A stretch of 64,000 bases of DNA from an uncultured Clostridia bacterium (GTDB taxonomy: Bacteria > Bacillota > Clostridia > Oscillospirales > Oscillospiraceae), in assembly GCA_947170435.1 (NCBI GenBank), contig CAMVTO010000003.1:1-64000 (forward strand). The letters are read 5' to 3'. The translations under genes were made by a program, and so were the position numbers. The notes beneath the pieces were generated by a model, which ran no database searches, was not told where the DNA came from, and saw only the letters and a list, made by a program, of their open reading frames with translations. Shown here in pieces: positions 24,023 through 24,170 of this stretch (the stretch's first letter is position 1; each line of letters starts with the position of its first letter).

Positions 24023-24109
24023 TCAACCTCTGACGGAGAGCATATCAAAGCGGATGCGCATAAACATGCACATCTTCTCCATCATGGTCATCATGGCGAC
24101 GTTCTTCAT
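24023..24109 (-). CDS. Met-rich leader peptide MKNVAMMTMMEKMCMFMRIRFDMLSVRG
   Basis: 28 codons, 9 Met; AGGAG SD upstream; promoter at 24142-24170; attenuator hairpin before metQ. Confidence 0.8.
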   Translation of the reverse strand: MKNVAMMTMMEKMCMFMRIRFDMLSVRG

Positions 24110-24141
24110 GGCAATGCTCTCCTTTCAATCAGGCTGGCGAT

Positions 24142-24170
24142 ATCATAGCACCGATTGCCTATGTTGTCAA
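24142..24170 (-). promoter_or_regulatory. Sigma70-type promoter for Met leader/metQNI
   Basis: minus strand TTGACA-N17-TATGAT. Confidence 0.8.

What the first reader, a model, noticed from the sequence alone, without database searches (positions are those of the whole stretch)
24023..24170. Met-rich leader peptide and attenuator upstream of metQNI
Seen on the minus strand: TTGACA-N17-TATGAT promoter, AGGAG SD, and a 28-codon ORF MKNVAMMTMMEKMCMFMRIRFDMLSVRG with 9 Met codons. This is followed by a 10-bp perfect GC hairpin with T-run (23960-23992), then metQ. The ORF is too short for the ORF track. Established: amino-acid-rich leader peptides before intrinsic terminators are the hallmark of ribosome-mediated attenuation (trp, his, ilv paradigms), whereas Firmicutes methionine genes are usually controlled by SAM riboswitches or Met T-boxes, neither of which I can see here. 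Inference: methionine uptake is controlled by ribosome stalling on Met codons. I could not identify a convincing antiterminator pairing by eye.
Basis: partly seen in the sequence, partly recalled or inferred. Interest (0 to 1): 0.82.

Follow-up and report, generated by a model that had tools for sequence, protein, structure and literature searches.

The report
Methionine-sensing leader peptide before metQNI
In front of a methionine-uptake operon of gut bacteria lies a tiny gene packed with methionine codons and a switchable stop signal, so uptake is probably turned on when ribosomes run short of methionine; the same device recurs in front of methionine genes across many related bacteria.

Summary
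It contains a promoter, a Shine-Dalgarno (SD) site, a 28-codon ORF with 9 Met codons, a 10-bp terminator, and then metQ-metN-metI. It is not chance. Met-rich leaders precede metQ in 40 of 99 distinct related loci, against 0 in shuffles and 1 of 282 control upstream regions. Inside them ATG triplets are almost all in frame (302/11/2), and all 40 are followed by an intrinsic terminator. The end of the ORF (region 2) can pair either with the leader's own SD arm (1:2) or with the terminator's 5' arm (2:3). Cognate pairings beat all 2,000 permutations, while the control pairing does not. No SAM riboswitch was found at metQ in 80 loci; five loci carry a T-box there, and none of those has the leader. 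Copies also precede metY. Best explanation: trp/his-type ribosome-mediated transcription attenuation sensing charged tRNA-Met. It is inferred, with no expression data. The only precedent I found is an untested Streptomyces lividans "metL" before metNIQ, with no typical terminator. A second conserved leader (RANFRFGRM, invariant CGA-ATG) often follows the first at metQ and metY; the window's lineage lacks it.

The parts
24142..24170 (-). sigma-70-type promoter TTGACA-N17-TATGAT
   Evidence: a TTGACA / TATAAT-type promoter stands at the same place before nearly all of the 40 comparable leaders (read by eye)
24157..24175 (.). palindrome GCCTA-N9-TAGGC over the -35 box; candidate operator (inferred)
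   Evidence: conserved in six genus members, with a compensating change in G003 (ACCTA..TAGGT), also in two that lost the leader
24114..24136 (-). region 1: arm CAGCCTGATTGAAAGGAGAGCAT containing the leader SD; pairs with region 2
24117..24122 (-). leader Shine-Dalgarno GGAGAG
24023..24109 (-). 28-codon Met-rich leader peptide ORF (MKNVAMMTMMEKMCMFMRIRFDMLSVRG)
24024..24046 (-). region 2: end of the ORF, GATATGCTCTCCGTCAGAGGTTG; pairs with region 1 or region 3, not both
24008..24020 (-). small hairpin GCCGC-GCT-GCGGC between the ORF and the terminator, nested in the antiterminator
23978..23994 (-). region 3: terminator 5' arm plus loop, TGACCGGAAGGCATATC; antiterminator partner of region 2
23953..23992 (-). 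intrinsic terminator (10-bp stem 23992-23983 / 23975-23966 plus T-run)
23073..23921 (-). metQ, methionine-binding lipoprotein (first structural gene)
   Evidence: PF03180
21895..22905 (-). metN, ATPase with NIL domain
   Evidence: PF00005 + PF09383; best NCBIfam hit TIGR02314 MetN, below its cutoff
21185..21895 (-). metI, permease
   Evidence: PF00528; best NCBIfam hit MetI, slightly below its cutoff

Best explanation
This is a ribosome-mediated transcription attenuator of the trp/his kind, using Met codons as control codons and governing metQNI. Shown by sequence: promoter, SD, Met-rich ORF, three mutually exclusive pairings (1:2, 2:3, 3:4), terminator, cognate operon. Inferred: when charged tRNA-Met is scarce, the first ribosome stalls on the Met codons at positions 6-17. 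Region 1 is then separated from region 2 by the ribosome. Region 2, whose pairing begins at codon 22, stays free and pairs with the terminator's 5' arm (2:3), so RNA polymerase reads through into metQNI. When Met is plentiful, the ribosome reaches the stop codon directly after region 2 and covers region 2. The terminator (3:4), which starts about 30 nt further on, then forms and transcription ends. Without initiation, 1:2 hides the leader's SD and again leaves 3:4 free, as in classical superattenuation.
For: Anatomy. Met-rich leaders at metQ in 40/99 loci against 0 in shuffles and 1/282 controls. ATG triplets are in frame 302/11/2 and Met is 23.2% of residues. The profile conserves mainly Met, then Cys. 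A terminator follows in 40/40 against 2/120 shuffles. Cognate 2:3 energy is below all 2,000 permutations (z -7.3) and 1:2 likewise (z -5.1), while the control pairing 1:3 is not (z -0.45); both hold without the genus members. In the window itself 2:3 has z -4.0 and 1:2 z -3.25. The device also stands before metY (TIGR01326 above cutoff) in G349 and G423, and twice in G349, at metQ and at metY. Upstream neighbours differ between loci, so it travels with metQ and not with the gene before it. T-boxes sit directly upstream of metQ in L105, L128, L129, L133 and L140, and none of these has the leader.
Against: No transcript, Ribo-seq or mutant data. In the full leader the terminator wins at equilibrium, so antitermination must be kinetic, as is normal. 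In the window 2:3 holds a C.A mismatch and a bulge. Genus members G001, G002, G005, G006 and G014 have metQ without the leader, so it is dispensable. An earlier duplex test with looser regions gave weak averages for 2:3 (mean z -0.5). The five-sequence genus alignment alone gives no significant covariation for 1:2. Met starvation should also slow initiation of the leader itself.
Confidence: 0.86

Rival explanations
1. The leader peptide acts as a nascent-chain arrest peptide that senses free Met, SAM or another metabolite in the exit tunnel, as TnaC senses Trp, rather than by slow decoding of Met codons. The downstream RNA switch would be the same.
For: Part of the pattern recurs (MEMCMCxMCM), and Cys is also enriched at 8%.
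Against: Sequence outside the Met codons varies freely in length and composition across 40 leaders, unlike arrest peptides. The window's close relatives keep Met but change neighbouring residues.
Confidence: 0.07
2. The hairpin is only the terminator of the upstream livKHMGF-type operon, and the Met-rich ORF is an unrelated small protein, for example a Met/Cys copper-binding peptide.
For: A liv-type ATPase gene ends 17 nt before the promoter. MxM and CxC motifs can bind Cu(I) (general knowledge).
Against: Upstream neighbours differ between loci while leader plus terminator stay with metQ. The device also stands before metY, not before metal genes. Its promoter lies between livF and the hairpin. 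Regions 2 and 3 are matched to each other.
Confidence: 0.03
3. It is an undescribed riboswitch or protein-bound RNA (for example for SAM) in which the ORF is incidental.
For: The leader RNA is unusually stable (z -5.2). A palindrome over the -35 box suggests that a protein regulator may also act.
Against: ATG triplets are in frame 302/11/2, which an aptamer would not need. The Met-codon part shows no common fold across loci, and no Rfam family matches.
Confidence: 0.04

Closest known systems
Ribosome-mediated attenuators of trp, his, thr, ilv and leu operons in Proteobacteria (classical knowledge)
   Same: Leader ORF rich in the cognate codon, SD, competing 1:2, 2:3 and 3:4 pairings, intrinsic terminator, cognate operon downstream.
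   Different: Senses Met; controls an uptake operon; lies in Oscillospirales-type Firmicutes; the 1:2 stem includes the leader's own SD.
Streptomyces lividans metL before metNIQ (PMC8079986): MSTTSDRTPATEATTTPGARCMCRRMCAF
   Same: Met/Cys-bearing leader ORF before the same operon type, proposed as an attenuator.
   Different: Only 4 Met including the start; leaderless transcript; the paper reports no typical Rho-independent terminator; untested; no sequence relation to this leader is evident by eye (not tested).
Histidine leader peptides at hisS/hisZ in bacilli (PMC2965389) and the Leu-rich ilv attenuator peptide of Staphylococcus aureus (PMC5794164)
   Same: Regular ribosome-mediated attenuators in Firmicutes where T-boxes are the rule.
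   Different: Different amino acid, genes and sequences.
Methionine T-box and SAM (S-box) riboswitch leaders of Firmicutes
   Same: Premature termination control of methionine genes; T-boxes occupy the same place before metQ in five relatives.
   Different: Sense uncharged tRNA or SAM by RNA structure; no match here.

Membership tests
Ribosome-mediated transcription attenuator (trp/his type) | Short ORF with SD, downstream of a promoter and upstream of the operon | tested here: met
Ribosome-mediated transcription attenuator (trp/his type) | Cluster of codons for the amino acid that the operon handles, conserved in relatives | tested here: met
   9 of 28 Met; 40/99 metQ loci; in-frame ATG 302/11/2
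Ribosome-mediated transcription attenuator (trp/his type) | Intrinsic terminator between leader ORF and first structural gene | tested here: met
   40/40 loci against 2/120 shuffles
Ribosome-mediated transcription attenuator (trp/his type) | Antiterminator that excludes the terminator, and a 1:2 protector that excludes the antiterminator | tested here: met
   Pairing potential only; formation in RNA was not tested. Genus-level covariation alone is too thin
Ribosome-mediated transcription attenuator (trp/his type) | Readthrough rises when the cognate aminoacyl-tRNA is scarce; leader is translated | not testable with these tools
   needs reporter, tRNA-charging or Ribo-seq data
SAM riboswitch (any class) | Match to an Rfam SAM family | tested here: not met
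   no match at gathering threshold or at E <= 10
T-box | Match to RF00230 | tested here: not met
   the same model does find T-boxes at metQ in five relatives

The most novel reading that the evidence does not exclude
Methionine genes (metQNI, metY) in many Oscillospirales and related Firmicutes are governed by a two-tier peptide system. First comes a Met-codon attenuator. Behind it stands a second leader ending in RANFRFGRM, whose last Arg is always CGA and whose Met is followed by TG across both stop and Cys codons. This second peptide would be an arrest peptide or single-codon sensor for Met or SAM, acting on the SD of the structural gene. The window's lineage has kept only the first tier.
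Probability: 0.35. Interest if true: 0.8.

Novelty: new variant of a known kind. Interest (0 to 1): 0.66.

Why it matters
Methionine control in Firmicutes is taught as SAM riboswitches, T-boxes or repressors. A widespread codon-counting attenuator for methionine adds an amino acid to this mechanism, at least as far as the open-access papers searched here show. It sits where related bacteria carry a T-box, so it gives a natural case of exchange between sensing systems. It also raises a testable puzzle: how a leader that must itself be initiated with fMet reads Met shortage. If the RANFRFGRM peptide behind it proves to be a sensor too, methionine genes of abundant gut bacteria are run by two peptides in series.

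Tried and rejected
SAM riboswitch, T-box or other Rfam family in the window leader: none. Pfam and NCBIfam models for the leader: none informative. Searching relatives with the bare 28-residue leader found only genus members, because its only strongly conserved content is Met; starting from metQ and reading upstream worked. A first duplex test with wide regions and dinucleotide shuffles was weak for 2:3. Extending region 3 over the terminator loop, where the window's antiterminator visibly pairs, and comparing with permuted loci gave the clear result. The region limits were thus refined after seeing the first result, although the same limits were applied to all loci and to the control pairing. 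Formal pair counts in the five-member genus alignment: not significant for 1:2, one compensated A-U to G-C pair in the terminator. Literature searches for a methionine-rich leader found only the S. lividans case.

Full report
Check of the observation. On the minus strand, TTGACA-N17-TATGAT stands at 24170-24142, GGAGAG at 24122-24117, the 28-codon ORF with 9 Met at 24109-24023, a 10-bp perfect stem at 23992-23983 / 23975-23966 with a T-rich tail, and metQ at 23921. metQ is an NlpA/MetQ lipoprotein (PF03180). metN has an ABC ATPase plus NIL domain. metI is a permease whose best NCBIfam match is MetI, slightly below that model's cutoff. The 212-nt leader folds far better than shuffles (z -5.2).

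Is it more than chance? I collected metQ with its upstream DNA from the genus, the family and 80 named public contigs, giving 99 distinct upstream regions. A sORF with SD, 15-50 codons, at least 5 Met and at least 15% Met occurs within 450 nt of metQ in 40 of them. It occurs in 0 after dinucleotide shuffling (20 rounds), in 1 of 99 antisense and in 1 of 282 upstream regions of other ORFs. Further clear cases miss the strict rule, such as L045, L048, L051, L053 and L056. Within the 40 ORFs ATG triplets fall 302 in frame, 11 and 2 in the other frames, and Met makes up 23.2% of residues, followed by Arg, Ser and Cys. So it is the codon that is kept, not an RNA word. In the alignment of 27 leaders the strongly conserved columns are Met.

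Phylogeny in the genus. G003, G009, G008 and G015 carry recognisable homologues, and G011 (the same locus as Oscillibacter sp. ER4, L119) a diverged Met-rich form. G012 and G004 have a different short ORF. G001 and G005 keep the promoter but lack leader and terminator, and G002, G006 and G014 have only short gaps. The device is thus gained and lost, as attenuators are.

The missing antiterminator. The end of the ORF, GATATGCTCTCCGTCA (24046-24031), can pair with TGACCGGAAGGCATATC (23994-23978), that is with the terminator's 5' arm and loop: 15 pairs, one C.A mismatch, one bulge. The same stretch, with its flank, can pair with the arm that holds the leader's SD (24136-24114). These are the classical 1:2, 2:3 and 3:4 choices. 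Across 38 non-redundant loci the cognate 2:3 energy is lower than in all 2,000 permutations of partners (z -7.3), and 1:2 likewise (z -5.1). The control pairing 1:3 shows nothing (z -0.45). All this holds when genus members are left out. Against dinucleotide shuffles 2:3 is significant in 19 of 40 loci and 1:2 in 10 of 40, the control in 2 of 40. The window has z -4.0 and z -3.25. Caveats: I fixed the region limits after a first, looser test had been weak, and pair counts within the small genus alignment are not significant by themselves. Terminators follow in 40 of 40 loci against 2 of 120 shuffles at dG <= -12.5.

Context. Genes upstream of the leader differ between loci, so the terminator is not simply the end of the liv operon. 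A profile of the leaders, run over 300 genomes of the order, finds the device before metY (O-acetylhomoserine aminocarboxypropyltransferase, TIGR01326 above cutoff) in G349 and G423, and before metQ in G518, G349 and G359. T-boxes lie directly upstream of metQ in L105, L128, L129, L133 and L140, and none of these has the leader. No SAM riboswitch was found in the 80 loci scanned. This is the pattern of alternative sensors for one signal.

Mechanism. In low Met the ribosome stalls at Met codons 6-17. With the usual footprint its leading edge stays short of region 2, whose pairing starts at codon 22; 2:3 forms and transcription goes on. In high Met the ribosome stops at the UGA directly behind region 2 and covers it. 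The terminator starts about 30 nt further on, outside the footprint, and forms. Distances are read from the sequence; footprints are general knowledge; the switch itself is inferred. If the leader is not initiated, 1:2 hides the SD and the terminator forms. A twist for Met is that shortage should also slow initiation, so the response may not be monotonic; I could not test this.

Known or new? Classical attenuators are known for Trp, His, Thr, Phe and branched-chain amino acids. In Firmicutes, His leaders in bacilli (PMC2965389) and a Leu-rich ilv peptide in S. aureus (PMC5794164) are described. For Met, the only precedent in the searched library is S. lividans metL before metNIQ, a 29-residue ORF without a typical terminator and untested (PMC8079986). 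An actinobacterial survey found no such regulation for Met (PMC1262725). Subscription papers were not searchable, so 'not described' is limited to this library. I rate it a new variant of a known kind.

A second leader. In about half of the Met-leader loci (19 of 40), another short ORF follows the terminator and ends in a motif such as LVRANFRFGRM. A profile search of 150 genomes, with no metQ or metY in the query, returned 20 best loci, of which 17 lie directly before metQ or metY by reading the downstream protein. In 19 of 19 readable cases the last Arg is CGA, against 6 of 85 other Arg codons. The Met is followed by TG in 18 of 19, whether this reads as stop or Cys. It is absent from the window but present in G015 of the same genus (L014). 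What it senses is unknown; arrest by Met or SAM, or single-codon starvation, are open.

Verdict. Confidence in Met-dependent ribosome-mediated attenuation is 0.86, resting on comparative evidence only.

Noticed in passing
L014 (G015), L042-L056, L073-L137, L174-L193; absent from the window between 23953 and 23938: A second conserved leader peptide...LVRANFRFGRM[C], stands between the Met-leader terminator and metQ or metY, or alone before them. Its last Arg codon is CGA in 19/19 cases and the Met codon is followed by TG in 18/19, across stop and Cys readings.
   Followed up: partly
window 24175-24157: Palindrome GCCTA-N9-TAGGC over the -35 box of the metQ promoter, conserved in six genus members with a compensating change (ACCTA..TAGGT in G003), also where the leader is lost (G001, G005). 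A repressor may act in addition. In other lineages ACCTA-N5-TAGGT lies near the transcription start of metY leaders.
   Followed up: partly
L105, L128, L129, L133, L140: T-box directly upstream of metQ in Lachnospiraceae-labelled contigs, in place of the leader; in L129, L133 and L140 a TwoAYGGAY RNA is called on the opposite strand next to it.
   Followed up: no
L008 (G005), L010 (G001): Close relatives keep the metQ promoter but have lost leader and terminator in between, which should give metQ expression free of attenuation.
   Followed up: no
L015, L016 and L091 (G012, G004, Oscillibacter sp. MSJ-31): metQ preceded by a short ORF of another sort, MLKLLKERMCPHGSCSRMSGRM, with repeated CGAATGTG and no Met-rich leader.
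   Followed up: partly
L188, L192: The RANFRFGRM-type leader (NFRYGRMC) also stands before an unidentified membrane protein rather than before metQ or metY.
   Followed up: no
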